This document shows, in pieces, positions 12,401 to 51,041 of a DNA stretch of 61,886 nt (the first letter of the stretch is position 1; each line of letters starts with the position of its first letter). The notes beneath the pieces are model-generated. The model was not told the DNA's origin and ran no database searches. It worked only from the letters and a program-made list of their open reading frames with translations. This DNA is from a virus. The stretch is from IMG/VR virus record IMGVR_UViG_3300025879_000023, positions 1 to 61,886 of that record; one strand, given 5' to 3'. Both the position numbers and the translations under genes were made by a program.

Positions 12401-15400
12401 TAGACCTAGCCGAGCTTCTTGAAAAAGACGTAGTCAAATTAATAAAAAGCCAAGGTGTTGAAAATTTTTTAATAGAAAACAGAGAAGCTTTACTTGATAA
12501 TCTTACTACAACATTTTTATCTAAGCATCCGTTTTTTAGAAAAGGTATACTTAAAAGAGTAAAAGGAGAATGGGTCGCTCCGACTAAAGTTAGCACGTAT
12601 AAATACGATTGGATTAACGAAAAAACAGGAGATAAACTTAAAATAGATAGAGATAATGCAGCTGGCAGAGGTTTAACTTCTGGCCCTGAGTTTATTAAAA
12701 GAAATCCAAAAATAAAAGAAATATTAAAAGAAAATGAATTTGTAGATTATCATTTTCAAGATGGTGCTTTAAGAAATAAAATTAAAACAAATCCAGTTAA
12801 TTCTATTGCTAGACAAATATCTTCAGAATATGGCTTAGAAGTTCTGCAAGATGATTTACTTACGGAAGGGCCGTTAACAAAAGCTATTTCTGAAAGAGCA
12901 GATTTATATGGCATTGTAGTAGCTAAAGCAAGTGCTGAAAAGGCAGCTAAAGATATAGACAGGGGATTAATTAAATTCTCTATGTCAACCGCTCGAGTTG
13001 CGGATTCTGTTGTTAAAGGATATTTAAAATCTACTGACGGTATTAATTCTAAAGAATATAAAGATTATATAATCAGTCTTGGCAAAGATGGTAGTTATAT
13101 AGATGATTTAATTCAAAATAATTTATGGATTACGGAGCTTCTTCAAAACGAAAAAGCGGCTAATAAAGGATTAAAATATGAAAAGGTAATTGAAAGATTG
13201 CTTAATTCAACAATAAAAGAATCTGTAAAAGATTTTAAAGTTAAAATTTTAAAAGACCCTAAGCAAGGAGGTTTTTCTTCTAAAGGAAAAGGTGATTTAT
13301 CAATAGCTTTTAAAGACGTAATAGCAAATATTGAATTAAAATTAAATTCTGAAGCACAATCCGGAAGTTTTACTATAAAAAATATTGGCGAACAAAAACC
13401 AATTGAGGTAACAAACAAAAAAACAAGCTATCTTAAAGAAATGCAAGATGCTGTTGATAGTAAAGAATTTAAAGATGGTATTGCTAATTTTTTAAAGAAT
13501 GCAAAAGCAGAATTAAAAAGGCAAGGGTTTGATCCAAAAGAATATGATACAAGTAAGTTTCCTGTAGATCTTCCTAAAAGTGTAATGGAATCAATTGAAA
13601 AAACTGGTTTAAGTTTTAATATAGATCTTGAAAACTTAAATGAGATTATTGATTTTTATTCTAATAAAGGCGTCAACTATATTCAGATCGGAGATAAAGG
13701 ATTATTTTCAATTGGTAAGGATGTTCTAGGACTTGGTATTATGGCTCCAAGTTTACGTGGAAAAGGACAAATAAGGGTTAGAATGTTATCTTCTAACAAA
13801 GGAAAAGATATTAGATCGCAAAGATTTAGAGCATTTTATAACTTTACAGAAGTTAATACTCAAGATGGAGGTTTAACATTAGATAAACCGGATGACATTA
13901 AATTAATGTTAGAATCTGGCATTGATAATATAAAATTTTCTAAATCGATGGAGGCAACTCCTGAGGTAGAAAACTCTATGAATACCACGTTTAATAAAAT
14001 TATTGAACGTAAAAAAGGCGTTCTTGCAACTGAAACTATTTCAAAAGCAACAGCTAAATTAGCTGGTCAAAAAGAAGGTAGATTTAAATTATTTGTTCCG
14101 CCAACTGCTGATGATTTATTAGGTTTAGTATATAACTTTTTAGGAACAGGCAAGCAAGGAGATGCTGATATGCAATTTTTTAATGAAAAATTGTTTAGAC
14201 CATTAGCCAGAGCAAATTTTCAATTAAATGCTGAACGACAAGCTATAAAGCAAAGATGGCAAGAAGTTGTAAAATCAAATAAAGGCATTACCAAGGTTCT
14301 TAGGAAAGAAAGTGACTATAAGTTTTATACAAATGACCATGCTGTTAGAGCGTGGATGTGGGATAAACTTGGTTATGATATTCCTGGAATAAGCGAAACA
14401 GACAAGGCAGCATTAATAGAATCAGTTAATTCTAGTGAAAAGCTTTTAAAATTTGGAGAAGAACTTATAGATGTTCCAAACAAAAAAGAAAGCTGGTTAA
14501 AACCAGAAGATGATTGGACGGCTAGTACGGTTGAAATGGATCTTCAAGAAATACTAAGTAAAATTGGTAGAGCTAGAATATTTGAAGAGTTTATTACAAA
14601 TTCTGATATTATATTTTCAGAAGGTAATTTAAATAAAATTGAAGCAGCCTACGGTCCAAAATTAAGAGGAGCATTGGAAGATATGCTTTATCGTATTGAA
14701 AAAGGTAGAGCAAGAAATGAAGGCGGGAATAAAATGGCTGCGGCATATTTAGATTGGGTCAGAGGCTCGGTGGCTACAACTATGTTCTTTAACACAAGAT
14801 CAGCATTGCTTCAACAACTTTCTATTGTTAACTTTACAAACTGGGAGGATAACAACATATTTGCTCAGGGTAAATTTATCGCAGGGAGCCCTAAAACGTA
14901 CGCAAAATATTGGACTGATATATTTAATTCCGATTGGATGAAAGAGCGTAGACAGGGCTTAAAAACAGATATAAACGAGTCTGAGCTTGTAGCTAAACTA
15001 GAAGGAAGCAAAAACAAAAACAAAGCTTTATTAGCTTATATTTTAGAAAAAGGATTTTCACTTACTAAATATGGAGATAATATCGCAATAGCAACCGGCG
15101 GAGCGCCGTTTTTGTATAACAGAGAACAAAAGTATATTAAAGAAGGCATGACGCCTGCTGAAGCAAAAAAAGAAGCATTTTTAGATTTTCAAGAATTAGC
15201 AGAAAGCACACAACAATCTTCAAGACAAGATTTATTGTCAAATCAACAGGTTAGTGTTATTGGCAGGATATTTTTAGCTTTCCAAAACACGACTATGCAA
15301 ATGACCCGCTTACAAAAGAAAGCTGCTTTAGATTTAATAAATAAAAGAGGTAGCTTTAAAGCGAATATATCAAGGCTTGTTTACTATGGCGCAATCCAAA

Positions 15401-16056
15401 ATACTATATTTTCTTTCTTACAAAGCGCTTTATTTGCTGGTGTTTTTGGAGATGATGAAGATGAAAATTTAAAACTAGATGATAAAACTTTAAGAGCTGC
15501 TAATACTGTACTCGATAGTGCATTAAGAGGATCCGGTATTGGTGGAGCAGCATTAGCTACATTAAAAAATGCAATTATTGCATGGGCAAAAGAAAATGAT
15601 AAAGGTTGGAAAGCTGATAATTCAAAAGTAATTATTGAATTACTAAATATTTCTCCAGCTGTTGGTATTAAGGCTAGAAAAATTAACACAGCAATGAATG
15701 CTTATAAATATGGCAACAAGGTAGTTGATGATGTTAGCTTTGCTAATCCAAATCACCCTTATTACGGTATTGCTGGAAGTTTAACTTCAGCAGCATTTAA
15801 CATACCATTAGATCGAGTTGTTACAAAAGCGCAAAACCTGCAAGCTTTAACAAATCAGGAAGCAGAAGCATGGCAACGTACAGCTCTATTTTTAGGTTAT
15901 AACACTTGGGATGTTGGATTAAAAGATCCTGAAATTGAAGCAGCTAAAAAATCTGCTAAAAAAAGTAAATCATCAAGCAGAACATCGGGCAGAACATCCG
16001 GTAGAACATCCGGTAGAACATCCGGTAGAACATCAGGAAGAAGCTCAAATAGATAA
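9418..16056 (+). CDS. Giant polyvalent internal protein with HExxH metallopeptidase motif
   Basis: 2212 residues, the largest gene. The region about 205-390 has several Gly/Ala-rich hydrophobic stretches (SISMMVGGATTSIG, GGGGIYGAPINTA) that could cross or perturb membranes. HEVLH at residues 621-625 is a zincin-type HExxH motif, preceded by TTAQ, suggesting a peptidase domain. Residues about 810-910 (IVDEYKGMAAKIAAVYRDRPG... LAAYINKYLRPR) match a helical domain I associate with large polyvalent phage proteins. Residues about 1780-2050 form a conserved helical C-terminal region (RGSVATTMFFNTRSALLQQLS). The tail is (RTSG)x5. This is the usual style of virion proteins injected with the DNA. No RNA polymerase catalytic motif was seen. 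Peptidase activity is an inference. Confidence 0.6.
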   Translation: MNELEQIVQRMIDAGESEENIALVIKEYNSKTLQPSENVGKPESQGLGAPVAENAAPEIQLTDTVSPSAGGSLELPTTKAYSIDGKKVTKEEFDNYTKEQEKKKEIAKMSFIDKLKVDLAKGSVSLGEMFASVPETIYDIASLPQNLLAKIPGLEKLKTSSKDFKETINVENPILEYYSQEKEELEKVQNIYNNANYDTQGIYENFKKGNYSDGFKQLASGITESAPVSISMMVGGATTSIGKLSAGGTVVFAGPEIATQREEKPEQSEFANVIKGLGLAAAETVYSSIGTGTIGKVYKDILLREGKEEGVKVFRKGLVDMYSTALKKFGAPAAMLGEGVEEVATTITQNMINEKNPFENVADSFIQGVGGGGIYGAPINTAQAISGVKDGITNIKINKELKNSSFNNIVDAFKPGAKSEEATINVSKIKNVTSVFDKKVNLEVENGNITESEAYDTKLNFRKTQQAVNRLKPLEFSSTFETEAVDLLKEKENLSNEIKEINDPSLTVVQKTKLETINNRLEELVIEDSKTKTKVKGEEDIAKAKKIAEALPEELNLTIEDFETTAELQEALQKEGKTEGEAKKLSDSFGFIVQKPNGGPQKIYINKEVAFNSGVATTAQHEVLHAVLRKAIPGNIELGKNLKDFVEEIAGDKFMNTEFAQRFEAYELEYDNTLNSLNTELDSGAISQEKYETESQKALSNLWEETMPLLSESITNGDIDVKSSIWEKLKDFLNRVFNTSNIKNVKFDSGKDVFNFVKDYNKIYKTGKGIKTLSKIAKGDIEGKLVTNQESKIDEVIKSSVGDLASSRVQQIYDEQGVAGAMDIVDEYKGMAAKIAAVYRDRPGFETYKEDLIDGILNDPTYGVLGLTLKYKPEENKGVPLAAYINKYLRPRSITLANQLLGKDEASTFKSDITEVKDVMATETAEDAITASEEIAKEKPVKKKPKLRESIRLDSELNEKLNNALQKAIALNIKKFDQAKGQNQTISPFVADVKIDLAELLEKDVVKLIKSQGVENFLIENREALLDNLTTTFLSKHPFFRKGILKRVKGEWVAPTKVSTYKYDWINEKTGDKLKIDRDNAAGRGLTSGPEFIKRNPKIKEILKENEFVDYHFQDGALRNKIKTNPVNSIARQISSEYGLEVLQDDLLTEGPLTKAISERADLYGIVVAKASAEKAAKDIDRGLIKFSMSTARVADSVVKGYLKSTDGINSKEYKDYIISLGKDGSYIDDLIQNNLWITELLQNEKAANKGLKYEKVIERLLNSTIKESVKDFKVKILKDPKQGGFSSKGKGDLSIAFKDVIANIELKLNSEAQSGSFTIKNIGEQKPIEVTNKKTSYLKEMQDAVDSKEFKDGIANFLKNAKAELKRQGFDPKEYDTSKFPVDLPKSVMESIEKTGLSFNIDLENLNEIIDFYSNKGVNYIQIGDKGLFSIGKDVLGLGIMAPSLRGKGQIRVRMLSSNKGKDIRSQRFRAFYNFTEVNTQDGGLTLDKPDDIKLMLESGIDNIKFSKSMEATPEVENSMNTTFNKIIERKKGVLATETISKATAKLAGQKEGRFKLFVPPTADDLLGLVYNFLGTGKQGDADMQFFNEKLFRPLARANFQLNAERQAIKQRWQEVVKSNKGITKVLRKESDYKFYTNDHAVRAWMWDKLGYDIPGISETDKAALIESVNSSEKLLKFGEELIDVPNKKESWLKPEDDWTASTVEMDLQEILSKIGRARIFEEFITNSDIIFSEGNLNKIEAAYGPKLRGALEDMLYRIEKGRARNEGGNKMAAAYLDWVRGSVATTMFFNTRSALLQQLSIVNFTNWEDNNIFAQGKFIAGSPKTYAKYWTDIFNSDWMKERRQGLKTDINESELVAKLEGSKNKNKALLAYILEKGFSLTKYGDNIAIATGGAPFLYNREQKYIKEGMTPAEAKKEAFLDFQELAESTQQSSRQDLLSNQQVSVIGRIFLAFQNTTMQMTRLQKKAALDLINKRGSFKANISRLVYYGAIQNTIFSFLQSALFAGVFGDDEDENLKLDDKTLRAANTVLDSALRGSGIGGAALATLKNAIIAWAKENDKGWKADNSKVIIELLNISPAVGIKARKINTAMNAYKYGNKVVDDVSFANPNHPYYGIAGSLTSAAFNIPLDRVVTKAQNLQALTNQEAEAWQRTALFLGYNTWDVGLKDPEIEAAKKSAKKSKSSSRTSGRTSGRTSGRTSGRTSGRSSNR
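15979..16038 (+). repeat. Five tandem 12-bp repeats encoding RTSG
   Basis: Five adjacent copies of AGAACATCnGGn encode (Arg-Thr-Ser-Gly)5 at the C-terminus of the giant protein; the three central units are identical. A multiple of three keeps the frame when copy number changes. The other frame reads EHPV repeats, which is only a shadow. Confidence 0.9.
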
Positions 16057-25294: not shown

Positions 25295-26035
25295 TTAAAG
25301 TGTTTTTGATATAAAATAATTCTTAGGATCGAAACTTTGATCCTTATAGTACAATCTGTACTGCTCAGCGGCTTCCTCAACTTTAAACTTACCACGCTCA
25401 AGGAACTGAGGGGAACAGTCAAAGATACCAATTTTTTTTGTTTTTTTATCTATAACCAAGAAAATAAAATCCATATTAAAATAACTTGAATATATAAATG
25501 CTTGACTATCATAGTTATAGTTTCTTGCGCTTTGCTCAAAACGTGTTATGTCTCCAGATGTTTTAAGATCAACAATAATACCTTGTGTATTGTTTTTAAT
25601 ATCTGTTTTACATTTCCACCATTCACCCGCTAATTCTATAAGGCCTGGAATTTCGTACTCAACATCTATGTCGCGAATTAAGCCATTTGCCGTTTCATTA
25701 GCCATAAGGGTTTCATTCAAGGCCTGTAGCATATCAGCTTCATGCTGCAATAAACATATCTCTGGGTTTGTCAGAGCTTTGTACTCATTATTGTTACGTG
25801 TTTTTGCATCAATAATTTTGTACCTATTCAGTTTTTCCGGTTCCAACACTAATGTGTGGAAGTAAGCTCCTTTTACCAAGTTCGGATTAGCGGGCTGTGG
25901 TTGGTGTAACATAAGAGGATCAGTTAAAAGAGTTCCTATGTTAGAATTAGATAAAAACTGTTTTCCGAAATCACCGTAATACAGCTCATCATCTTCTAGC
26001 TTTTTTAGTATGTCATTTAACTGAGCCTTTTTCAT
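25295..26035 (-). CDS. PD-(D/E)xK exonuclease, RecE/YqaJ-type
   Basis: 246 residues. The N-terminal pattern NSNIGTLLTDPLMLHQP and GAYFHTLVLEPEKL, and the catalytic GIIVDLKTSGD with a following Q-x-x-F/Y helix, match the RecE-like exonuclease group (PDDEXK/DUF3799). It would resect double-stranded ends to provide single strands for the annealing protein. Its start overlaps the ERF stop by one base, a classic exonuclease-annealase pair. Confidence 0.8.
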   Translation of the reverse strand: MKKAQLNDILKKLEDDELYYGDFGKQFLSNSNIGTLLTDPLMLHQPQPANPNLVKGAYFHTLVLEPEKLNRYKIIDAKTRNNNEYKALTNPEICLLQHEADMLQALNETLMANETANGLIRDIDVEYEIPGLIELAGEWWKCKTDIKNNTQGIIVDLKTSGDITRFEQSARNYNYDSQAFIYSSYFNMDFIFLVIDKKTKKIGIFDCSPQFLERGKFKVEEAAEQYRLYYKDQSFDPKNYFISKTL

Positions 26036-26559
26036 TATAGTGTTTTTAAAAGTTGAGGATCTACTTCGTATTTCTTTTTAATATCTTCTATAGTTCCTTT
26101 ACCAGATTTAATAAATTCTTTTGCTTTTTCTAAAGCTTGCCCTTCTAATTTAGGTTTTGTTACTGCCCTACCATGTTGATTTGTTGCATCCGAATCAGCT
26201 GTATCATCTATTAATAATAAATTCCCAAGCGCGTATTTTTTTCCATAAGAAGAACCGCTGCCATACTGTTGAGGCACTTGCATACCCTTTTGATTTAAAT
26301 CAACACCAACCAAAGCTGTTGCAGATATTTCAGCTGTACCATCAGATATTGTAGCAACTGATTTAAACATTGGAACAGGTTCTGTGGCTATTAACTCTTC
26401 GTCTATTTTAAAATACACACTGTATTTATCATTAAACGGCTTAAGTCCTTCAAGTATATCCTCAGCAGATCTGAAGTTGTACTTACCAAAAGAATTAAAT
26501 CTACTTTTCTTCGATTTAAACTCTACTTGGATTTTACTTAGTTTTTCGTGTAGTTTCAT
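26035..26559 (-). CDS. ERF-family single-strand annealing protein
   Basis: 174 residues. Features of the ERF family: KLSKIQVEFKSKKSRFNSFGKYNFRSAEDI at the start (known pattern K-x-x-x-N-x-F-G-x-Y-x-Y-R), a central SATALVGVDL, and the QYGSGSSYGKKYALGNLL segment. Anneals complementary strands in phage recombination. It works with the neighbouring exonuclease and SSB. The leader has AAATTAAATTAATATG immediately before the start. Confidence 0.88.
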   Translation of the reverse strand: MKLHEKLSKIQVEFKSKKSRFNSFGKYNFRSAEDILEGLKPFNDKYSVYFKIDEELIATEPVPMFKSVATISDGTAEISATALVGVDLNQKGMQVPQQYGSGSSYGKKYALGNLLLIDDTADSDATNQHGRAVTKPKLEGQALEKAKEFIKSGKGTIEDIKKKYEVDPQLLKTL

Positions 26560-26583: not shown

Positions 26584-27345
26584 TCAAAGATAATCAATTA
26601 CTTGCGAAGAATCTACATTTTCTATTAATTTTTGCACTGCTTGTTTCTTTATTTCAGAAATTCTCACATACGCACTTGATCCTTCTATATTTAATATTTC
26701 TGCTATTTTATTTGCAGAATGCTTATCACAATTAAGCCCATAGCTTAATCTCAATACTTCAAATTCTCTTTCATCTAAATGCTTTTTTAACAAACTTGTT
26801 AAATATACATTAAGCAAAGCTATATTATAAGGTTCAGACTGATCTGGTATTTGGTGCATCATATTTTCATCATCTTCATTAACTTGTTCATCAATACTTA
26901 AGAATATAGAATTAAAAAACATAGCCACCATTGCTTTATCTTTACCTTCATCTTTTCTAATTTCATTTAGCTTATGCTCTGGTATTCTTATATCACCTCT
27001 ATTAATATCAATAGCTCTTCGTATTGACCCTTTTATTCTTTTTGACAGGAATGACTTTAATGTTTTTTCTGGATCGTCAGATTCAATTACTGTCTCCCAA
27101 ATTATTTTATCTACCGCTCTTATTAGTCCAAGACTTCCATCTTGAATAAGATCTGTAATATCCATAACACCTGATGCTTGATCAGAAGTTGAAAACTTCC
27201 TAGCAATATTCTCTACCAATGGCAGGAAAGTAACAATTAGTTCGTCTCGTGTGTAATCTTGAAATGCTTTAAACTCAATTAAATTAATTGACGCTTTAAC
27301 ATCATCTTTATACCTCACATAATTGCGAATGTTGTACTTTTTCAT
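26584..27345 (-). CDS. Phage-encoded sigma-70 family factor
   Basis: 253 residues. Region 2 is visible (residues about 35-115): LVENIARKF, then MDITDLIQDGSLGLIRAVDK, then an SFLSKRIKGSIRRAI helix. Region 4 (residues about 190-245): LDEREFEVLRLSYGLN, then KIAEILNIEGSSAYVRISEIKKQA as an HTH. It lacks a clear sigma 1.1. It would redirect host RNA polymerase, probably to the plus-strand late genes or to the repeated elements described here. The start overlaps the upstream gene by 38 bases. Confidence 0.85.
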   Translation of the reverse strand: MKKYNIRNYVRYKDDVKASINLIEFKAFQDYTRDELIVTFLPLVENIARKFSTSDQASGVMDITDLIQDGSLGLIRAVDKIIWETVIESDDPEKTLKSFLSKRIKGSIRRAIDINRGDIRIPEHKLNEIRKDEGKDKAMVAMFFNSIFLSIDEQVNEDDENMMHQIPDQSEPYNIALLNVYLTSLLKKHLDEREFEVLRLSYGLNCDKHSANKIAEILNIEGSSAYVRISEIKKQAVQKLIENVDSSQVIDYL

Positions 27346-27961
27346 TTTGTTGATTTAATAGTTCTTTCTCATCTTTAAGTTCATTGGTTATATTTCGGTG
27401 TATGGTTCTAGTTGTGCAGTTTAATAGCTTAGCTATTTTTGTTATTGTTATTTTTTCGCCATTATCATTTATATAAAGCATCATGTCATATATGTCTGCT
27501 TCTGTTACTCTTTTTGTTTTACCTATCATTTGGCCCACAATGCTGAGCTTTTCTGATAATGATAATTTACACTGATATTTAAATATTATTTTACGTGTTT
27601 TATTTTTAGGCGGTTGTTCTAAATCTTTCATGCTAACATCGTAAACAATTTTGCTTACTGAATCATCTGGCGGTTCAAATGTTATAAATCCATTTTTTTT
27701 ATTACAAATATACTCTGCTAAATTATTAAAAGCTTTTTGATCAAGCTGAGGATTTAAATACCATAAAACTAATAAGTGCCACTTTAAAGATCTATAACTT
27801 GTTATTTTAGCTTTGCTTCTAAACAGATCGTAACACTCATGAGTACCATCTTCATAAAAGTAACCCCATTCAAAACATGCTGTTGGCTTGTCTGATATAG
27901 GTAACCTCCTATAAATTATCCGTCTTTGATTTAAATAATCAAGCAATCTTTCGTGCGACAT
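27308..27961 (-). CDS. HTH protein, candidate phage regulator
   Basis: 217 residues. The C-terminus (residues about 165-190, ITITKIAKLLNCTTRTIHRNI) is a clear helix-turn-helix. The N-terminal half is aromatic-rich and unrecognised (YRSLKWHLLVLWYLN). Its ATG lies inside one copy of the three-copy dyad element (27954-28000), suggesting autoregulation or a common binding site. It overlaps the sigma gene by 38 bases, so both are probably co-expressed. Alternatively it is a replication initiator; the sequence does not decide. Confidence 0.65.
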   Translation of the reverse strand: MSHERLLDYLNQRRIIYRRLPISDKPTACFEWGYFYEDGTHECYDLFRSKAKITSYRSLKWHLLVLWYLNPQLDQKAFNNLAEYICNKKNGFITFEPPDDSVSKIVYDVSMKDLEQPPKNKTRKIIFKYQCKLSLSEKLSIVGQMIGKTKRVTEADIYDMMLYINDNGEKITITKIAKLLNCTTRTIHRNITNELKDEKELLNQQNEKVQHSQLCEV

Positions 27962-28000
27962 TAGCCTATTACTATTTATATTAACTACCTATTGTCACTG
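27954..28000 (-). repeat. Dyad element copy C, over the HTH gene start
   Basis: On the minus strand: CAGTGACAATAG, a loop with GTTAATATAAATAGTA, then GGCTAATGTCGCAC. It shares arms and loop with copies A (32496-32543) and B (34370-34416). The ATG of the HTH gene is inside the right arm. Confidence 0.75.
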
Positions 28001-28633: not shown

Positions 28634-29139
28634 ATCATTTTTACAATTGCGTCAAGACGTGTGTATAGCATATCAAGCTTTTCTTCGTCCACTGAATTAA
28701 TTAACTCTATGAATTCCTCTGTTTTATTTTTAGGTTCTATTTTTTGTTTCTTTAAAATATCTATCTCAAGATTTTGTTTAAATACTTTTGTTCTTAGCCT
28801 TTTGTTTTGCTCTGCTAAGTTTTTAATATTTAACATATTGGAGTCGGCATCTTCTAGGTTTTTATTTTCTACATTAACAGAAAATGAATCATATACAACT
28901 TTAAGAGGTTCTGAATACATAACAGCTTCATCAAATAGTTTTAAGCCGTGTAATACTGTTGCGTGATCTCTACCTACTAATTTACCAATTGACGTTAAAG
29001 ATTGTACTGTGTATCTTTTAGCAAGCTTATAGTATACAGCTCTTGCATAAGCCATATCTCTGGTTCTTGTTTTCTTTTTTAAACTAACTTTAATGTTAGC
29101 TTCAATATAATCTCTTATAGTTTCTAATTGTACTGTCAT
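28630..29139 (-). CDS. DnaA domain IV-like DNA-binding protein
   Basis: 169 residues. Residues 20-75 (ARAVYYKLAKRYTVQSLTSIGKLVGRDHATVLHGLKLFDE, in pieces) match the DnaA domain IV helix-turn-helix with the signature RDHATVLHGLK. The AAA+ ATPase domains of DnaA are absent; a coiled-coil tail (residues 100-165) follows. It may bind DnaA-box-like sites, recruit host replication or act as a repressor of initiation. Which is unknown. Confidence 0.8.
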   Translation of the reverse strand: MTVQLETIRDYIEANIKVSLKKKTRTRDMAYARAVYYKLAKRYTVQSLTSIGKLVGRDHATVLHGLKLFDEAVMYSEPLKVVYDSFSVNVENKNLEDADSNMLNIKNLAEQNKRLRTKVFKQNLEIDILKKQKIEPKNKTEEFIELINSVDEEKLDMLYTRLDAIVKMI

Positions 29140-29780: not shown

Positions 29781-29973
29781 CTGTAATTAATTTTAAAATG
29801 TGTTTATATATTTCTACTTCTTGCTTGTGTTGCTTAATTTGATTGCGTTTTACAGCAGGGCTTTCGTCAATACCCATCCATTGCCAGTCGTCAGCTTCAG
29901 CTTGTTGCCATTTGTGTATAGCATTTTGCAGCTTAGCATTAATTTTGTTGTGTGCTTTTTCTCTTATATCCAT
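29725..29973 (-). CDS. Small helical protein of unknown function
   Basis: 82 residues, helix-rich with many Trp, Gln and Lys (KLQNAIHKWQQAEADDWQWM; KQHKQEVEIYKHILKLI). It overlaps the tiny gene upstream by 11 bases. No motif known to me. It belongs to the dense early-type gene cluster. Confidence 0.55.
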   Translation of the reverse strand: MDIREKAHNKINAKLQNAIHKWQQAEADDWQWMGIDESPAVKRNQIKQHKQEVEIYKHILKLITDDRVRNATLINANSGENI

Positions 29974-30101: not shown

Positions 30102-30224
30102 CTATTTGTATTTTAAATATAGTATATAGTTTAGTACAGCCCATGCAATTAAAAATAATGCTTTAGCTAGCTTCTCTATTACTGCAGCAAGTTTGTTGCT
30201 AGGTGTTATGAGTTGTTTATTCAT
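30102..30224 (-). CDS. Tiny single-pass membrane protein
   Basis: 40 residues. A basic N-terminus with one helix (KALFLIAWAVLNYILYL, residues 21-37) and a short basic end. It follows promoter cassette 9, but its ATG is only 3 bases from the -10, so the transcript start would fall at or inside the ATG; it may be made leaderless or by read-through. A small membrane toxin-like or envelope-modifying early peptide is possible. Confidence 0.5.
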   Translation of the reverse strand: MNKQLITPSNKLAAVIEKLAKALFLIAWAVLNYILYLKYK

Positions 30225-30227
30225 ACA

Positions 30228-30256
30228 ATTATATTATCAATTAGTATTCGTGCTAA
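30228..30256 (-). promoter_or_regulatory. Promoter cassette 9 (degenerate)
   Basis: TTAGCA (30251-30256), 17-bp spacer containing CGA and TTGATAA, then TATAAT (30228-30233). Starts just after the stop of the 62-residue gene. Unlike the others, only 3 bases separate it from the next ATG. Confidence 0.65.
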
Positions 30257-30258
30257 GT

Positions 30259-30447
30259 TTATTTTTTAAACGAACTTTGTTTTACTAATTTATTTTTAAA
30301 TCTTGATTTGCCTTTAGTTTCAATAGACAACCATTCGTCGTCAGTTAATGGTTTACACTCACCAAGACCAGCTAATTTTTTGATACGTGCATAAGCTGCT
30401 TGCTTGCGTTGTTCTTCTTTGTATTGTAAAAATTCTTCTTTGGTCAT
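30259..30447 (-). CDS. Small basic helical protein
   Basis: 62 residues from the ATG at 30447, chosen because it lies 2 bases after the previous stop; a longer in-frame start would sit in the previous gene. Lys/Gln-rich helix (EEFLQYKEEQRKQAAYARIK), then LAGLGECKPLTDDEWLSIE and a basic tail. Unrecognised. It ends 2 bases before promoter cassette 9. Confidence 0.6.
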   Translation of the reverse strand: MTKEEFLQYKEEQRKQAAYARIKKLAGLGECKPLTDDEWLSIETKGKSRFKNKLVKQSSFKK

Positions 30448-30449
30448 GA

Positions 30450-30797
30450 TTAAAAAGTATGTGCCATGTGATTTCTTATGTAAAGTTCCTTGTATAATTG
30501 TTCCCATCTGATGCTGTCGTCGTCTAGTCCGCAAGCATTAAGTATGTATTGATCAACATATATATTAGAACCTAAGTCTATAGCAGATTCGATTTCATCT
30601 TGAAGCATATAAGCATCAATATATATATCTCTATCAGTTATTACATTACCCCATTTACCTTGATCCATAGCTACATAAATATCGTAGCCATCTGCTGTTT
30701 GTATTGATTCAAATGTAACATCATAATCCGTTCCTTTGTGTTCAGTGTCAAGTATTGCTCCTGACTTTTCAATTACTAAATTTTTGTAGTGTGACAT
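30450..30797 (-). CDS. Small acidic protein, antirestriction-like in style
   Basis: 115 residues from the second ATG (30797), since the first (30806) overlaps the preceding gene. The protein is acidic and aromatic (YDIYVAMDQGKWGNVITDRD; YVDQYILNACGLDDDSIRW). Such acidic small early proteins are common among host-takeover or anti-defence factors, but no family is recognised and this is only a stylistic hint. Confidence 0.55.
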   Translation of the reverse strand: MSHYKNLVIEKSGAILDTEHKGTDYDVTFESIQTADGYDIYVAMDQGKWGNVITDRDIYIDAYMLQDEIESAIDLGSNIYVDQYILNACGLDDDSIRWEQLYKELYIRNHMAHTF

Positions 30798-30799
30798 AA

Positions 30800-30988
30800 T
30801 TACCATGTTTTAGTTAAGTGTGTGTTATAATATTGTTTTAATGTTTTATTAAATATTTGTATTGCTTCGTCGTCTGTTTCTTTAATTATATTTTTTGTGT
30901 ATAGCATTTCAAGTAGTTGCTCGCTTACAAAGTCACAAGTAAGTTCGTATAGATCGCTAGATAGTTCTTGATATTCTGGCTTTGTCAT
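30800..30988 (-). CDS. Small acidic helical protein
   Basis: 62 residues, acidic with helical periodicity (SDLYELTCDFVSEQLLEMLY; EIQIFNKTLKQYYN-like end). Its start shares one base with the stop of the upstream 99-residue gene (TAATG). Unknown family. Part of the operon from promoter cassette 8. Confidence 0.55.
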   Translation of the reverse strand: MTKPEYQELSSDLYELTCDFVSEQLLEMLYTKNIIKETDDEAIQIFNKTLKQYYNTHLTKTW

Positions 30989-31287
30989 TATTGTGCGATT
31001 AAGTTATTAGCTGCATACTCTTCAAATGATGGTCCGTGATCGTAGAAGTTTTGATAGATTGCATTGTAAGCTGCTTCTTCATAGCTTCGAGGTCTGCCAA
31101 ACAAATCGTCTTCTTGAAATACATCGTAGTTTAATTCGTCAACTGCATCTTTGCAATCTTTAGTGTAGATACACATATTGTCAACAACCTCGTGTATAGC
31201 AGCGTAGTAGTCGTCTAGATCTTGAATAGTATAATCTTTTAAGTCTAATAAAATTCGTTCAGTGTAAAGTCTTTCAAAGTGTGTCAT
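30988..31287 (-). CDS. Acidic early-type protein
   Basis: 99 residues, strongly acidic and rich in Tyr/Asp (DLKDYTIQDLDDYYAAIHEV; DVFQEDDLFGRPRSYEEAAY). First gene after promoter cassette 8, with the ATG 24 bases past the -10. The family is not recognised. Its acidic, DNA-mimic-like composition and placement suggest an early host-interaction role, unproven. Confidence 0.6.
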   Translation of the reverse strand: MTHFERLYTERILLDLKDYTIQDLDDYYAAIHEVVDNMCIYTKDCKDAVDELNYDVFQEDDLFGRPRSYEEAAYNAIYQNFYDHGPSFEEYAANNLIAQ

Positions 31288-31309
31288 AGTTATATGTTTT
31301 TAGTTGTTA

Positions 31310-31340
31310 CATTTATATTATCAATTGTTGTTCGTGTTAA
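31310..31340 (-). promoter_or_regulatory. Promoter cassette 8
   Basis: TTAACA (31335-31340), 17-bp spacer with CGAA at its start and TTGATAA at its end, TATAAATG (31310-31317). The -35 begins shortly after the GP88-like stop; the next ATG is 24 bases from the -10 hexamer. Confidence 0.8.
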
Positions 31341-31345
31341 GCTTA

Positions 31346-31951
31346 TTAGTGGTATATTAATCCTACTTTGTTTGTTGTATTAAACCATTTGGTTGCGTTT
31401 AAATCATTCTCAGAAGCATTTGCGTATCCTGCTGCAGTTAGTTCATCTTTACTTTTAAAAATTTCTGTGTGACGATCAATTGTGCGATCAATCATATGTT
31501 TTTGTTTGCCCGAGTTACTATAGATAACATCAAAATTGTCAGGTAGTATTGTGTTTTTAAACATCTCAACCATATTCGTGTAGCTATAGAATTTAACATC
31601 TGGATTTTGTACTGCAATCTTTAACCACTTGTCAAGATATGCCCTAGAATAATAGTCGCCCGAGTCGTGTATGCGGACAAAGTCTGCTTTCTTCTTTTTT
31701 ATTTCATCATTCATTTTTGAAATGAATTCTGTTGTTTTAGTTAATTCATACCTCTTTTCAAATGCCGGTTTAACGTTCGACCATATATATGCACCTTTCT
31801 TAGCATAACAAAACTTAACACATTCAAGAGCCATCGGACAAGTTAATTTACCACTTGCAGATTTGTATGCAGGGATCCCAAAGTTAAATACCCGCTTGTT
31901 AAGTAATGTACTTGTTTTTTTTAGTTTAGAGTTTTGTGTAAGTAAATTCAT
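31346..31951 (-). CDS. GP88-family protein with cysteine cluster
   Basis: 201 residues. Recognised from the GP88 family of phage proteins by the early NFGIPAYKSASGKLTCPMA segment and the cysteine cluster C38-x5-C44-x3-C48 (CPMALECVKFCYA). The following alternating pattern DFVRIHDSGDYYS, VKFYSYTNM and IYSNSG suggests a beta/alpha barrel. The cluster could ligate a metal or an iron-sulfur centre, as in radical-SAM-like folds; this is inference. It is driven by promoter cassette 7. Confidence 0.75.
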   Translation of the reverse strand: MNLLTQNSKLKKTSTLLNKRVFNFGIPAYKSASGKLTCPMALECVKFCYAKKGAYIWSNVKPAFEKRYELTKTTEFISKMNDEIKKKKADFVRIHDSGDYYSRAYLDKWLKIAVQNPDVKFYSYTNMVEMFKNTILPDNFDVIYSNSGKQKHMIDRTIDRHTEIFKSKDELTAAGYANASENDLNATKWFNTTNKVGLIYH

Positions 31952-31972
31952 TTTAGTTTGTTTTAGTTGTTA

Positions 31973-32003
31973 CATATATATTATCAATGCTCTACCGTGT
32001 TAA
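31973..32003 (-). promoter_or_regulatory. Promoter cassette 7
   Basis: TTAACA (31998-32003), 17-bp spacer ending TTGATAA, TATATATG (31973-31980). ATG of the GP88-like gene lies 23 bases past the -10 hexamer in an A-rich leader. Confidence 0.8.
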
Positions 32004-32008
32004 CCTTG

Positions 32009-32197
32009 TTAAAGCTTTAAATCTTTATTTATTTTTCTAATTTCTTTTTTCATTTCAATAATCAATTCTTTTAATACATATTTGTATTCAATCTTCAACG
32101 CAGCAAAATCTTCAAAATATAAATGCTTTCCTAAACTTGGTTTTGTTACCGCCGCGTGTATAGCATGCTCCCGTACCTTATCTTTATATAAACTCAT
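32009..32197 (-). CDS. Small basic helical protein
   Basis: 62 residues from the ATG at 32197, which overlaps the preceding stop as ATGA; an earlier ATG at 32203 is possible. Lys-rich helix at the C-terminus (LKELIIEMKKEIRKINKDLK). Unknown family. Coupled to the 60-residue gene before it. Confidence 0.6.
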   Translation of the reverse strand: MSLYKDKVREHAIHAAVTKPSLGKHLYFEDFAALKIEYKYVLKELIIEMKKEIRKINKDLKL

Positions 32198-32376
32198 GAC
32201 CATACTCTTATTAGATATTTTAATGTGTATTCTTCATCTTGTCTTGCAGTAAATTTCTTTGCTTCATCATATGCAGCATGTATATCCTCAGCATAAAAAC
32301 TATACTCAATTAGTTGTCTATTGTCTTGGACAGCTTGGAACTCTGTTCTATATAAGCCTAAGTTATTGTCTTCCAT
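32194..32376 (-). CDS. Small hypothetical protein
   Basis: 60 residues, with a beta-hairpin style start (LYRTEFQAVQDNRQLIEYSF) and a helix (AYDEAKKFTARQDEEYT). Layout resembles small PUA-like or DUF-type phage proteins but I do not recognise it. It lies 120 bases downstream (minus strand) of dyad element A, with a weak A/T leader. Confidence 0.55.
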   Translation of the reverse strand: MEDNNLGLYRTEFQAVQDNRQLIEYSFYAEDIHAAYDEAKKFTARQDEEYTLKYLIRVWS

Positions 32377-32552
32377 AATTATATAAGTTTTATTTATATT
32401 GTTGTAAAGGTTGTTAATTATTTGTTAGAATTAAAAGTAATGGTGTTATAATGAAGAGTCTCGTACTCTGTCGCATTATTTCTTCGTGTGAAAAACAGCG
32501 ACATTAGCCTGTTAATTATTATAGTAGTAGGCTAACGTCCCACTTTTTTTAG
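32377..32552. other. Intergenic stretch with dyad element A and a possible 20-residue leader
   Basis: Besides element A it holds a GAGT-ACGAG-ACTC hairpin and, on the minus strand, an ATG at 32476 opening a 20-codon hydrophobic reading frame (MRQSTRLFIITPLLLILTNN) ending at 32414. No promoter cassette is seen here; TGTCGC near 32470 pairs with the GCGACA of element A. Confidence 0.4.
32496..32543 (+). repeat. Dyad element copy A
   Basis: CAGCGACATTAGCCT, loop GTTAATTATTATAGTAGT, AGGCTAACGTCCCAC: an 11-bp arm pairs with one G-U. Located just after a small gene's stop and followed by T-rich DNA on either strand, so a terminator role is possible, but the conserved loop argues for a specific site. 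Confidence 0.75.
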
Positions 32553-32771
32553 TTATAATTCTGCACTTTCAAAACAGTCGTATGCGTCAGTTACTTGTTT
32601 TATTTTGAATGCTGTTTTAAGATCTAGCAAGACGCTAAGTGTTAAGTCGCCTACAAATTTTTGCGTGGTGAGGTTGTGTTCAAGACGTTCACCGAGTGCC
32701 GGGTATTCTTTTTTGAATAAGATTAGTCTTGTTTGATATTGCGGTTGTAGTCTTTGGTTTAGTGTTTTCAT
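32553..32771 (-). CDS. Small hypothetical protein
   Basis: 72 residues, basic helical N-terminus (RLQPQYQTRLILFKKEYPAL) and an acidic C-terminal end (VTDAYDCFESAEL). The family is not recognised. It stands alone under promoter cassette 6, 20 bases from its -10, and its stop is 9 bases before dyad element A. Confidence 0.6.
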   Translation of the reverse strand: MKTLNQRLQPQYQTRLILFKKEYPALGERLEHNLTTQKFVGDLTLSVLLDLKTAFKIKQVTDAYDCFESAEL

Positions 32772-32789
32772 GTGTGTGTTTTTTAGTTA

Positions 32790-32820
32790 CGTATATATTA
32801 TCAAATGTGTTTCGTGTCAA
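32790..32820 (-). promoter_or_regulatory. Promoter cassette 6
   Basis: TTGACA (32815-32820), 17-bp spacer CGAA...TTGATAA, TATATACG (32790-32797). Stop of the upstream gene lies just before the -35; the next ATG is 20 bases past the -10 hexamer. Confidence 0.85.
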
Positions 32821-32826
32821 CCTTAT

Positions 32827-33003
32827 TTAAAAGTAGTCTTGGCGTATAAAGTTATTTATTATGTTATGTATAGCATCTTGATTGGTTCTTGTGTTGTGCA
32901 CATATCTTTCATCTTGTTTCCAATTCTTCAAGTTGTTTTCACCTTGCCACTTAGCATAGATCTCGTGAGCGATTTGTTGTAGTGTAGTTTCTTGTGTAGT
33001 CAT
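32827..33003 (-). CDS. Tiny hydrophilic protein
   Basis: 58 residues: MTTQETTLQQIAHEIYAKWQ, then a Trp/Asn/Lys-rich part and an Ile/Asn-rich helix (AIHNIINNFIRQDYF). The family is unrecognised. Single gene between cassettes 5 and 6. Confidence 0.6.
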   Translation of the reverse strand: MTTQETTLQQIAHEIYAKWQGENNLKNWKQDERYVHNTRTNQDAIHNIINNFIRQDYF

Positions 33004-33022
33004 AGTTATATTATTTAATGTT

Positions 33023-33053
33023 CATATTTATTATCAATTTAGTCTCGTGTCAA
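33023..33053 (-). promoter_or_regulatory. Promoter cassette 5
   Basis: TTGACA (33048-33053), 17-bp spacer CGAG...TTGATAA, TAAATATG (33023-33030). The upstream stop and GG lie directly before the -35; ATG is 21 bases past the -10. Confidence 0.85.
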
Positions 33054-33055
33054 CC

Positions 33056-33220
33056 TTATTTATATTCATTGTCTAAGGATCCATGGATATAAGACTCTTC
33101 AATAGCACTTTGTATTTTAGCTAAGCACATTTTTTCTGAGATGGTTTGTTTATTTATGTAGCAATCCATTATTGAAGTGATGAGGTCTAGTGTTGCTTCG
33201 TTTGTTTTAGCTTCGTTCAT
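33056..33220 (-). CDS. Tiny protein
   Basis: 54 residues: MNEAKTNEATLDLITSIMDC, then NKQTISEKMCLAKIQSAIEE and a short polar end. Two Cys and amphipathic helices. Located 11 bases after the 35-residue gene and probably transcribed from cassette 4. The family is not recognised. Confidence 0.55.
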   Translation of the reverse strand: MNEAKTNEATLDLITSIMDCYINKQTISEKMCLAKIQSAIEESYIHGSLDNEYK

Positions 33221-33231
33221 AGTTGTATTTT

Positions 33232-33339
33232 TTAATTGTTAAAATCTTCATATACTTCTTGTACCCATTCTTTTTCATTAGGACCTAGTTGGTTGTAGTC
33301 CATACCAAATTCGTCGTTTGCAATTCCATTGTAAGTCAT
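33232..33339 (-). CDS. Tiny acidic peptide
   Basis: 35 residues: MTYNGIANDEFGMDYNQLGP, then NEKEWVQEVYEDFNN. Strongly acidic. The ATG is exactly 20 bases past the -10 of cassette 4, as in the other cassettes, which is the main evidence that this short frame is real. Confidence 0.6.
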   Translation of the reverse strand: MTYNGIANDEFGMDYNQLGPNEKEWVQEVYEDFNN

Positions 33340-33357
33340 AGTTATATTTTTTAGTTA

Positions 33358-33388
33358 CATATATATTATCAATAGTCCTTCGTGTTAA
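33358..33388 (-). promoter_or_regulatory. Promoter cassette 4
   Basis: TTAACA (33383-33388), 17-bp spacer CGAA...TTGATAA, TATATATG (33358-33365), then leader GTAACTAAAAAATATAACT before the ATG. Confidence 0.85.
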
Positions 33389-33408
33389 CCTTTTTTATGT
33401 ATAGCATT

Positions 33409-33630
33409 TTATTTACAATACTTTTCTTCGTAGGCCATTAAATATTCTACTTGTTCTTTAAGATTTTTAAATTGTTTTTTTACTTGGTAGATTAATGGAG
33501 CTTGGTGGTAAGGGTTGTCTTGATTTGTTTTAAACCTTATGTATCTAGTTGTTGGGTATATTGCAGCCCATTTGCCATTTGCTAATGTGAAATAAAGATT
33601 TCCTTTTTTAGTTACTTTTATTAGTTCCAT
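33409..33630 (-). CDS. Small hypothetical protein
   Basis: 73 residues: beta-rich start (ELIKVTKKGNLYFTLANGKW) then a basic aromatic stretch and helix (VKKQFKNLKEQVEYLMAYEE). The LYFTLANGKWAAIYPTTRYI-like beta pattern may be a small barrel. Single gene under cassette 3, with the ATG 20 bases from the -10. Confidence 0.6.
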   Translation of the reverse strand: MELIKVTKKGNLYFTLANGKWAAIYPTTRYIRFKTNQDNPYHQAPLIYQVKKQFKNLKEQVEYLMAYEEKYCK

Positions 33631-33648
33631 AATTATATTTTTTAGTTA

Positions 33649-33679
33649 CATTTATATTATCAATTTACTCTCGTGTCAA
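33649..33679 (-). promoter_or_regulatory. Promoter cassette 3
   Basis: TTGACA (33674-33679), 17-bp spacer CGAG...TTGATAA, TATAAATG (33649-33656). The stop of the upstream gene plus GG directly precedes the -35. Confidence 0.85.
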
Positions 33680-33681
33680 CC

Positions 33682-33864
33682 TTATCTTTTTAGTAAACTA
33701 TCTAAGAATAAAGCTATTCCATTCTCATAGTCTTGCATTGCTTTAGACTCTTCGCATGTGTAGATTGGTTTGTGTGTCATAGCTCTTGTTTCTACTCCAT
33801 TTTTAGTGTAGTCGATCCATGTGTAATTAGACTTAGGGCTTGTGTGAATTTTGTAAGGAATCAT
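33682..33864 (-). CDS. Small hypothetical protein, first minus-strand gene
   Basis: 60 residues from the ATG at 33864. An in-frame ATG at 33897 would place the start inside promoter cassette 2, so it is rejected. MIPYKIHTSPKSNYTWIDYT, then MTHKPIYTCEESKAMQDYEN. A beta-hairpin style N-terminus with one Cys. It is the gene nearest the control region, with two promoter cassettes in tandem upstream, so probably the earliest and strongest expressed. Unknown family. Confidence 0.65.
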   Translation of the reverse strand: MIPYKIHTSPKSNYTWIDYTKNGVETRAMTHKPIYTCEESKAMQDYENGIALFLDSLLKR

Positions 33865-33882
33865 AGTTATATATTTTATATT

Positions 33883-33913
33883 CATATATATTATCAAAGT
33901 GAACTCGTGTCAA
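33883..33913 (-). promoter_or_regulatory. Promoter cassette 2
   Basis: TTGACA (33908-33913), 17-bp spacer CGAG...TTGATAA, TATATATG (33883-33890). ATG 20 bases past the -10. Confidence 0.85.
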
Positions 33914-33968
33914 CTCTTTTTTTATTTAGACTAAGTAATATTTAATTATTATTATTATTTTTTACTTA

Positions 33969-33999
33969 CATATATATTATCAAATAGCACTCGTGTCAA
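33969..33999 (-). promoter_or_regulatory. Promoter cassette 1, outermost
   Basis: TTGACA (33994-33999), 17-bp spacer CGAG...TTGATAA, TATATATG (33969-33976). No ATG follows at the usual distance; it runs into cassette 2, giving tandem promoters at the edge of the control region. Confidence 0.8.
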
Positions 34000-34369
34000 C
34001 CCTTTTAAAAATGCCCAAGGAAATGCTCAGTAATACACGTGAGGTGTCCTCAACGTAGCAAAGCTAAACGCAAAGTAAAACGTAAGTGTCAATGTAAACA
34101 TAGTATGGCGCCATAGAATATCCCAAACGTACACGAAAATCCCGCGGAAAGGTCAAACATAAACGCCAAAACGTCAGAAAAGCGGGGGACCCGGTCAAAA
34201 CAAAATCAAAAAGGTTTTTAGTGCAGCGTTGTAAAATATAGGTGTAATACCATACCTCAATATTTGCAACAATTTTTTTTCCATTCAGTGCTTTTATATA
34301 AAAAAAGGTGAATTTTTTTTAAAAAATTTCAAAAAACGCTACGCGTATTATATAAGGTACGGTGTAAAA

Positions 34370-34416
34370 GTGCGACGTTAGGGTGTTAATATAAATAGTA
34401 GGGGGCTAATGTCACC
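34370..34416 (+). repeat. Dyad element copy B, in the control region
   Basis: GTGCGACGTTAG, GGTGTTAATATAAATAGTAG, GGGGCTAATGTCACC. Same arms (GACnTTAG/CTAAnGTC) and loop as copies A and C. It lies 68 bases upstream of the first plus-strand gene of the fibre block. Confidence 0.75.
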
Positions 34417-34438: not shown

Positions 34439-34466
34439 TTGGGTCCTATGTGTAAGTATATATAGT
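34439..34466 (+). promoter_or_regulatory. Possible plus-strand promoter
   Basis: TTGGGT (34439-34444), 16-bp spacer, TATAGT (34461-34466), 17 bases before the ATG at 34484. A plausible sigma-70-like match only; it does not follow the cassette consensus on the minus strand, so another sigma may be needed. Confidence 0.35.
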
Positions 34467-34483
34467 ATACAAATTACTTAAAA

Positions 34484-49484: not shown

Positions 49485-51041
49485 ATGTCAGACGCAATTG
49501 TCAAGAACCTAAGTTTCGGTAACGAAGCTAAGGACAAAGTATTTGAAGGTATCACAAAACTCACAAAAGCCGTTAGCTCCACGCTCGGGGCTAGCGGTAA
49601 ATGTGTGATGCTTGAAGATGGAAATGGAAGACCAATAATAACAAAAGACGGTGTAACAGTAGCAGATAGTATTATACTATTAGATCCTGTTGAAAATATG
49701 GGGGCAACGCTTTTAAAAGAAGCTGCTAGAAAAACCGTAAGCGAAGCAGGTGACGGCACAACAACCGCAACTGTATTAGCGCACTCTATACTAACTGAAG
49801 CTTACAATGTAGCCGATAAAATTAGTTCAAGAGATTTAAAAATAGGTATAGACAACGCTGTTGAAAAAGTAGTTAAATACTTAGAGTCAATTTCAGTTGG
49901 TGTACAAGGAGATATGATAGATCAAATAGCTACTATCTCTACAAACAATGATTCTGAATTAGGTAAAATTATAGGTGATGCCTTTAGATCTGTTGATGAA
50001 ACAGGTGTAGTTATGATGGAAACATCGTCGAATGGTTCTACAGAAGTAGAAATAGTAGATGGAGTACAATATAACAAAGGATTAACGAACTCTCATTTTG
50101 TAACAAGCAAAAGTCAAAGAGTTGCTGAATTAGAAAACCCTTACGTGTTATTAGTTGAATCGCCAATAGATAACATAAGACAAATTCAAAGCGTGCTAGA
50201 GTTTGTTATAAAGGGTAATAAGTCTTTACTTGTAATAGCCGATGTAGACCAGCCAGTACTTGCAACTTTAGCAATGAATAAAGTTAAAGGTAATTTAAAG
50301 ATCAATGTTATTAATGCACCCACGTATGGTGTTGCTAAAAAAGAAACATTAGATGATCTTGCAATGCTAACAGGCGCCACTATTATAAATGAAGACTTAG
50401 GAGATGATTTAGATTTAATTAATCCTCAATACCTAGGCTCTTGCATAAAAAGTGTAACTACAGACGAAGAAACAATATTACAAGTTGGAGAAGTTTCAGA
50501 AGAGGTTCAAAATACTATAAAAGGTATTAAAGAAAAACTACTGACAACTACTGAACCACATGAAGTGGTAAAACTTGAAAGACGATTAGCAAGACTTGCA
50601 GCTAAAATAGCTATAGTAAAAGTTGGTGCTAATTCTGAAATAGAATTAAAAGAAAAGAAAGATAGAGTAGAAGATGCTATATGCGCAACTAAAGCCGCAA
50701 TTAAAGAAGGTATTGTACCTGGTGGTGGAATTGCACTGTTAAACGCATCGGAAACAGTTAAAGCTAAATCAATAGGTGAAGAAGCTTTGTTAGAGGCTAT
50801 TAAGGCGCCGTTTAAGACCATTTTAGAAAACGCAGGTATAGAGTATCAAGAATCTCTTAGAGGCAAAGGAATGGGTCTAAATGTGATAACTGGTAAAAAG
50901 GTTAATATGATCAAACAAGGTATTATTGATCCATTATTGGTTACTAAAAGTGCATTAAGAAATGCTGCCTCGGTTGCTACAACTATTTTATCTACTGATT
51001 GTGTAATTAATAACTTAAGGATTAATGAAGGCAATAGGTAG
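49485..51041 (+). CDS. groEL: Phage-encoded GroEL chaperonin
   Basis: 518 residues. Folds capsid or other virion proteins in an ATP-driven ring. ATP-site residues kept: ITKDGVTVA (D55), GDGTTTATVLA (89-99), RVEDAICATKAA with its Asp, GGGIALL, and IIDPLLVTKSAL near the C-terminus. Shorter than E. coli GroEL (548) and lacking the GGM tail; it ends NNLRINEGNR. The order groEL-groES is reversed relative to the usual groES-groEL, and they overlap by 17 bases. An apical domain differing from host GroEL is expected to choose phage substrates. Confidence 0.95.
   Translation: MSDAIVKNLSFGNEAKDKVFEGITKLTKAVSSTLGASGKCVMLEDGNGRPIITKDGVTVADSIILLDPVENMGATLLKEAARKTVSEAGDGTTTATVLAHSILTEAYNVADKISSRDLKIGIDNAVEKVVKYLESISVGVQGDMIDQIATISTNNDSELGKIIGDAFRSVDETGVVMMETSSNGSTEVEIVDGVQYNKGLTNSHFVTSKSQRVAELENPYVLLVESPIDNIRQIQSVLEFVIKGNKSLLVIADVDQPVLATLAMNKVKGNLKINVINAPTYGVAKKETLDDLAMLTGATIINEDLGDDLDLINPQYLGSCIKSVTTDEETILQVGEVSEEVQNTIKGIKEKLLTTTEPHEVVKLERRLARLAAKIAIVKVGANSEIELKEKKDRVEDAICATKAAIKEGIVPGGGIALLNASETVKAKSIGEEALLEAIKAPFKTILENAGIEYQESLRGKGMGLNVITGKKVNMIKQGIIDPLLVTKSALRNAASVATTILSTDCVINNLRINEGNR

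What the first reader, a model, noticed from the sequence alone, without database searches (positions are those of the whole stretch)
30228..33999. Nine near-identical promoter-leader cassettes in front of single tiny genes
Seen: on the minus strand TTGACACGA (or TTAACA/TTAGCA variants), a 17-bp -35/-10 spacer that always ends TTGATAA, then TATATATG-like, repeat at 33969-33999, 33883-33913, 33649-33679, 33358-33388, 33023-33053, 32790-32820, 31973-32003, 31310-31340 and 30228-30256. In seven of them the next ATG is 20-24 bases past the -10 with a similar A-rich leader. Most begin within a few bases of the previous stop, so each looks like a movable stop-promoter-leader-start unit. TATATATG nearly fits the Bacteroidota TAnnTTTG, with TTG 20 bases earlier. 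Inference: host-type early promoters, copied with genes.
Basis: partly seen in the sequence, partly recalled or inferred. Interest (0 to 1): 0.8.

Follow-up and report, generated by a model that had tools for sequence, protein, structure and literature searches.

The report
Array of phage-specific early promoters
An uncultured phage repeats one strictly built switch sequence nine times in front of its early genes; over a hundred related phage fragments carry the same switch, each with its own single-letter variant, it is not the ordinary host switch, and the stretches carrying it can be swapped together with genes.

Summary
The nine repeats are real, exactly placed and far beyond chance. Across 45 related phage contigs (331 sites) they are one rigid three-box element: TTACA / AAAYACGA / GATAAT, with the AYACG-GATAAT distance fixed, and a purine-only position 7 nt after GATAAT. 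That position is the likely transcription start, because in relatives 49 genes have their ATG exactly there (leaderless). So GATAAT is the -10 box, "TATATATG" is -6 to +1, and "TTGACA" is a lineage-specific sequence 12 bp from the -10. The Bacteroidota -33/-7 promoter is not met. The motif hits one contig in 84,980 cellular genomes, itself phage-like. Nearly every adequately covered motif-bearing contig encodes one orthologous sigma-70-family factor whose region 2 is closest to FliA, which reads GCCGATAA; phage sigma on host polymerase is the likeliest but unproven reader. Base -13 is genome-specific: within a genome copies agree although their spacers differ, and it switched at least 13 times. 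No RNA data exist; reader identity and timing are inferred.

The parts
33969..33999 (-). promoter copy 1: -10 GATAAT 33981-33976, +1 at 33969; no ORF follows before copy 2; outermost copy of the early arm
33883..33913 (-). promoter copy 2: -10 33895-33890, +1 33883; 19-nt leader to ATG 33864 (gene 33682-33864)
33649..33679 (-). promoter copy 3: +1 33649; 19-nt leader, gene 33409-33630
33358..33388 (-). promoter copy 4: +1 33358; 19-nt leader, genes 33232-33339 and 33056-33220
33023..33053 (-). promoter copy 5: +1 33023; 20-nt leader, gene 32827-33003
32790..32820 (-). promoter copy 6: +1 32790; 19-nt leader, genes 32553-32771, 32194-32376, 32009-32203
31973..32003 (-). promoter copy 7: +1 31973; 22-nt leader, GP88-family gene 31346-31951 (PF17338)
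31310..31340 (-). promoter copy 8: +1 31310; 23-nt leader, genes 30988-31287, 30800-30988 and following
30226..30256 (-). promoter copy 9 (TTAGCACG variant): +1 30226; 2-nt leader, gene 30102-30224; last copy before the sigma/replication operon
26584..27345 (-). phage sigma-70-family factor (regions 2 and 4; best solved relative sigma-28/FliA); candidate reader of the -10 box
27308..27961 (-). P217: conserved HTH-like protein overlapping the sigma gene, found in 84 of 87 relatives; candidate regulator
26035..26559 (-). Erf-type single-strand annealing protein; possible agent of recombination between cassettes
25295..26035 (-). exonuclease VIII-like nuclease (partner of Erf)

Best explanation
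The nine repeats are a phage-specific class of promoter that fires the early arm. Each has a -10 box GATAAT (-12 to -7) with +1 at the last base of the repeat, plus fixed upstream boxes centred near -25 (AAAYACGA) and -36 (TTACA in most relatives; lost in the window's own lineage, which has AAGGTTRACACGA instead). Transcripts start GUAAC (GAAC in some copies) and reach an A-rich, Shine-Dalgarno-free start after about 20 nt; in many relatives the AUG itself is +1 (leaderless). RNA polymerase of the Bacteroidota host most likely reads them while carrying the phage's own sigma factor (FliA-like region 2, GATAA-type -10), with a second, fast-changing specificity input seen as the genome-specific base at -13 and as turnover of the AYACG box. 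Because the unit runs from the previous stop codon to the next start codon, it also acts as a joint at which early genes are gained, lost or exchanged, plausibly by the phage's Erf/exonuclease recombination. Shown by computation: motif, spacing, strand, arm, register, base -13 pattern, gene turnover. Inferred: promoter activity, sigma reader, timing, recombination agent.
For: Nine copies, 0 expected. Gap between AYACG and GATAATA is 10 in 299 sense-strand cases against at most 4 at any other gap; 5 at gap 10 antisense. Anchoring on the upstream half alone predicts GATAATA at 98-100% per base in 220 sites, 2 antisense. Position 28 is purine-only, and ATG sits exactly there in 49 sites, against 0 one base upstream and 1 one base downstream. 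The copies lie on the early arm in one orientation. Sigma orthologue in 10 of 11 first contigs and 30 of 42 further ones; those lacking it whose positions were listed mostly have their array close to the contig end towards which the sigma gene would lie. Sigma profile's best solved match is FliA 1rp3, aligned through RIKGAI; FliA consensus is TAAAGTTT-n11-GCCGATAA (PMC2859248). Promoter unit present, absent or re-paired with genes among three close genomes.
Against: No RNA 5' ends. The sigma gene lies downstream of the array with no motif copy closer in the window, so a sigma-dependent array needs another first promoter or packaged sigma. Base -13 and loss of AYACG do not track sigma residues once kinship is considered. 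The extended GCC of FliA promoters is absent. All contigs are one phage family, so motif/sigma co-occurrence is not independent evidence.
Confidence: 0.6

Rival explanations
1. Same promoters and register, but read early by the host's primary sigma-A polymerase (perhaps helped by a virion or early phage protein binding AAAYACGA); the phage sigma serves the late arm.
For: Early-arm position upstream of the sigma gene removes the bootstrap problem. Neither base -13 nor AYACG covaries with sigma. Group A copies show GTTG-N20-TATATATG, a loose -33/-7 likeness.
Against: Host box TAHHTTTG at -12 to -5 (PMC6847099, PMC9723704) is met only at A-11 and T-7 by GATAATAT; none of the nine carries TAHHTTTG. 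No shared late-arm motif for the sigma was found. Motif absent from host genomes.
Confidence: 0.3
2. The repeats are operators of a phage regulator (like mycobacteriophage stoperators or ESAS) rather than promoters; the genome-specific base reflects repressor specificity.
For: Rigid bipartite site with a genome-specific base; cluster K ESAS repeats also have genome-specific consensus bases (PMC3203893).
Against: Polar, not palindromic; always co-directional with the gene; GATAAT at the distance from a purine-only +1 expected of a -10 box; ATG exactly at +1 in 49 cases.
Confidence: 0.06
3. The uniform base at -13 and the similar leaders are only the trace of recent cassette duplication or gene conversion, with no reader behind them.
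For: Leaders within the window lineage are nearly identical.
Against: Within-genome identity at -13 is 0.78 against 0.28 shuffled (z 35), while the seven adjoining spacer positions show excess of at most 0.09; conversion tracts of one base are implausible.
Confidence: 0.04

Closest known systems
PeSL mobile regulatory cassettes of T4-type phages (Arbiol 2010; seen here only as a cited reference in PMC4177764; otherwise from memory)
   Same: Early promoters repeated between small early genes, apparently serving as joints for gene shuffling.
   Different: From memory, PeSLs pair a host sigma-70 early promoter with a stem-loop; here the promoter is not host-type and no stem-loop accompanies the nine copies.
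SAS/ESAS of cluster K mycobacteriophages (PMC3203893)
   Same: Short asymmetric repeats just upstream of starts of non-structural genes, mostly one orientation, nearly absent from the host, with genome-specific consensus bases.
   Different: SAS is a ribosome-binding-site element with optional inverted repeats; here it is a three-box promoter-like element with a -10 box and +1.
sigma-28/FliA promoters (TAAA-N15-GCCGATAA)
   Same: Core -10 GATAA; phage sigma's best solved relative is FliA; CAAA lies at -35 to -32 in the family consensus.
   Different: GCC is replaced by N-T-X with a genome-specific X; additional fixed AAAYACGA box; spacing one base longer; -35 part lost in the window lineage.
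T4 middle (MotA-box) promoters (from memory)
   Same: A conserved box about 12 bp upstream of a -10 replaces a normal -35.
   Different: Box sequence unrelated; no MotA homologue was identified; a third box is present in most relatives.

Membership tests
Bacteroidota sigma-A promoter (-33 TTTG / -7 TAHHTTTG) | TAHHTTTG at -12 to -5 from +1 | tested here: not met
   -12 to -5 is GATAATAT; no TAHHTTTG at any of the nine copies
Bacteroidota sigma-A promoter (-33 TTTG / -7 TAHHTTTG) | TTTG about 19 bp upstream of the -7 box | tested here: not met
   family consensus there is TAAA or cTAA; GTTG only in the window's three-genome lineage
canonical sigma-70 promoter | TTGACA with 16-18 bp spacer to TATAAT | tested here: not met
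   TTGACA limited to G000, G002, G007 and 12 bp from GATAAT
sigma-28/FliA-type promoter | core -10 GATAA | tested here: met
   98-100% in 220 sites not selected for it
sigma-28/FliA-type promoter | extended -10 GCC at -15 to -13 | tested here: not met
   -15 A/T, -14 T 0.67, -13 genome-specific
sigma-28/FliA-type promoter | recognition by a FliA-like sigma | not testable with these tools
   phage sigma resembles FliA in region 2, but binding needs the bench
PeSL-type mobile regulatory cassette | repeated early promoter units with gene exchange between them | tested here: met
   three-genome comparison
PeSL-type mobile regulatory cassette | stem-loop next to the promoter | tested here: not met
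   one terminator-like site, on the other strand, in the region, and no inverted repeat within the cassette family
Start-associated sequence (SAS) | GGGATAGGAGCCC-type ribosome-binding repeat 3-7 bp before ATG | tested here: not met
   0 of 37 window genes have an SD-like site; the repeat is 2-23 nt from ATG and AT-rich

The most novel reading that the evidence does not exclude
A phage-encoded, fast-evolving specificity factor reads these promoters, so each phage lineage runs its early genes on a private one-base 'dialect' at -13 (and box AYACG), with all copies in a genome switching together; this would insulate a phage's early programme from co-infecting relatives.
Probability: 0.25. Interest if true: 0.85.

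Novelty: new variant of a known kind. Interest (0 to 1): 0.6.

Why it matters
It gives a testable promoter code for a large uncultured phage family, with predicted start sites, predicted leaderless early mRNAs and a candidate sigma. It is also a natural experiment in promoter-specificity evolution: one base changed in most or all of the roughly 4-13 promoters of a genome, at least 13 times, while the neighbouring spacers stayed diverse. If a phage factor reads that base, whole-regulon switching becomes directly testable.

Tried and rejected
First collection pattern had the spacer one base too long and found nothing. About 28 contigs share the motif only through one coding sequence (ttgcaTTAACACGCACTTGGTTTGATAATAGATGTG). 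Search for a late-arm promoter motif: the top hit GATATTGT is mostly conserved coding sequence. Covariation of base -13 with sigma or P217: no discriminating residue; apparent signals are no stronger than in the control enzyme ThyA. Sigma A111R against loss of AYACG: only three independent pairs, and L236 and L192 share R but differ in the box. Virion RNA polymerase in the 2212-aa protein: no polymerase motif or match. RNA hairpin for the palindromic element: no covariation. Rfam: nothing. P217 fold: no confident match. No cultured phage with a close sigma or similar region.

Full report
OBSERVATION. The window is a whole IMG/VR virus record of 61,886 nt. All nine repeats are present on the minus strand; with up to three mismatches they are the only ones, and shuffled sequence gives none. 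Seven have an ATG 19-23 nt after the box. Copy 9 has a 2-nt leader; copy 1 has no gene. No window gene examined has a Shine-Dalgarno-like site (0 of 37) and A is favoured at -3 and -6, as described for Flavobacterium (PMC6847099), so a Bacteroidota host is likely but not shown.

SURROUNDINGS. The genome has two divergent arms. The minus-strand arm (34.0 to 17.2 kb) carries the array, then a sigma factor, an Erf annealing protein, an exonuclease, a primase-helicase, thymidylate synthase and ribonucleotide reductase. The plus-strand arm carries virion genes. Relatives share this layout.

RELATIVES. A pattern scan found two close phages (G002, G007) and several distant ones carrying arrays of the same element. 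A looser pattern hit 103 stretches of viral contigs. A scan of 84,980 cellular genomes hit one contig, from a Sphingobacteriales MAG. It carries 12 copies on one strand and a GP88-like gene, so it is most likely a phage contig. Eighty further contigs were collected through the sigma factor.

THE REAL MOTIF. AYACG and GATAATA are almost always 10 bases apart: 299 sites, against at most 4 at any other distance. Selecting sites on the upstream half alone, the downstream GATAATA is 98-100% conserved per base in 220 sites, with 2 antisense sites. Some relatives have changed the middle box to AYACA or lost it, most of them keeping TTACA and GATAATA.

REGISTER. Seven bases after GATAAT lies a position that is A or G and practically never C or T. 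In 49 sites this is the A of the start codon of an ORF of at least 35 codons; none start one base upstream and one starts one base downstream. A second peak lies at 19-22 nt. This fits a -10 box followed by +1, giving leaderless mRNAs in some phages and about 20-nt leaders in the window's relatives. The host -7 box TAHHTTTG occupies -12 to -5 (PMC6847099, PMC9723704). Placing it on TATATATG would put +1 downstream of those start codons, so that reading fails for the family.

DIALECT BASE. In 45 genomes with at least four sites (331 sites), base -13 is the same within a genome far more often than expected (0.78 against 0.28, z = 35), while the adjoining spacer is essentially random. In the window it is T in all nine. 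On a sigma tree it changed at least 13 times. Uniformity without spacer uniformity argues against recent duplication and points to a trans-acting reader.

CANDIDATE SIGMA. The sigma is 65-94% identical to the window's in the nine relatives of the first set that have it. Of 42 further motif-bearing contigs, 30 encode it; the rest whose match positions were listed mostly have the array close to a contig end, so truncation is the likely reason. It has regions 2 and 4. Its best solved match is FliA, aligned across RIKGAI, and the FliA consensus -10 is GCCGATAA (PMC2859248). This is the basis for naming it as likely reader; it is inference, and the bootstrap question (how the first sigma is made) is open.

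MODULARITY. Among G000, G002 and G007 the spacer works as a tag. Tag AAACACAT precedes the same gene in all three. Tag AGAGTAAA precedes one gene in G000 and another in G007. Family F17 has its own cassette in G007, sits without promoter in an operon in G002 and is absent in G000. The GP88 cassette is missing in G007. New genes F19 and F22 are wedged between a promoter and its former first gene. So the stop-promoter-leader-start unit does behave as a joint. Recombination by the phage Erf/exonuclease pair is a plausible but untested agent.

LIMITS. No transcript data; the host is not known; contigs are uncultured and many incomplete; trees are quick maximum-likelihood trees of one protein; literature was limited to open papers, in which no description of this motif was found.

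Noticed in passing
window 34374-34413, 32500-32539, 27957-27996: A second family-wide element, a palindrome GTG(T)GAC-RTTAG-N20-26-CTAAYGTCaC, at the early/late junction, once inside the early arm, and overlapping the start codon of P217 (CTA-ATG-TC). That overlap is conserved in most relatives; no RNA covariation, so probably a DNA operator.
   Followed up: partly
window 27308-27961 (-): P217, an HTH-like protein found in 84 of 87 relatives next to and overlapping the sigma gene, with no confident fold match; its start lies inside the palindrome, suggesting autoregulation.
   Followed up: partly
window 33391-33409, 30891-30909, 29911-29924, 28658-28671, 32153-32166: Recurrent TGCTATACA(C/T)AAA, partly inside genes and upstream of promoter copy 4; the 9-mer TGCTATACA is also strongly enriched in the early arms of several relatives. 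Unexplained.
   Followed up: partly
window 34000-34350; L024 1900-2280: Noncoding stretch before the array with short GC-rich tracts (GACCGGGTCCCCC); in L024 it holds many GGTATCGG-like repeats. Possible origin or control region.
   Followed up: no
window 49485-51041 (+): The phage encodes a full-length GroEL-type chaperonin (phrog_5725, E 1e-133).
   Followed up: no
window 9418-16056 (+): 2212-aa ORF on the virion arm without any Pfam, PHROG or PDB match; not polymerase-like by motif.
   Followed up: partly
upstream of the first late gene: window 34440-34481 (+), and the same place in G001, G006, G009, G010: Conserved TACGTAAGTATATA-like sequence (GTGTAAGTATATATAGTATAC in the window), a candidate late promoter.
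   Followed up: partly
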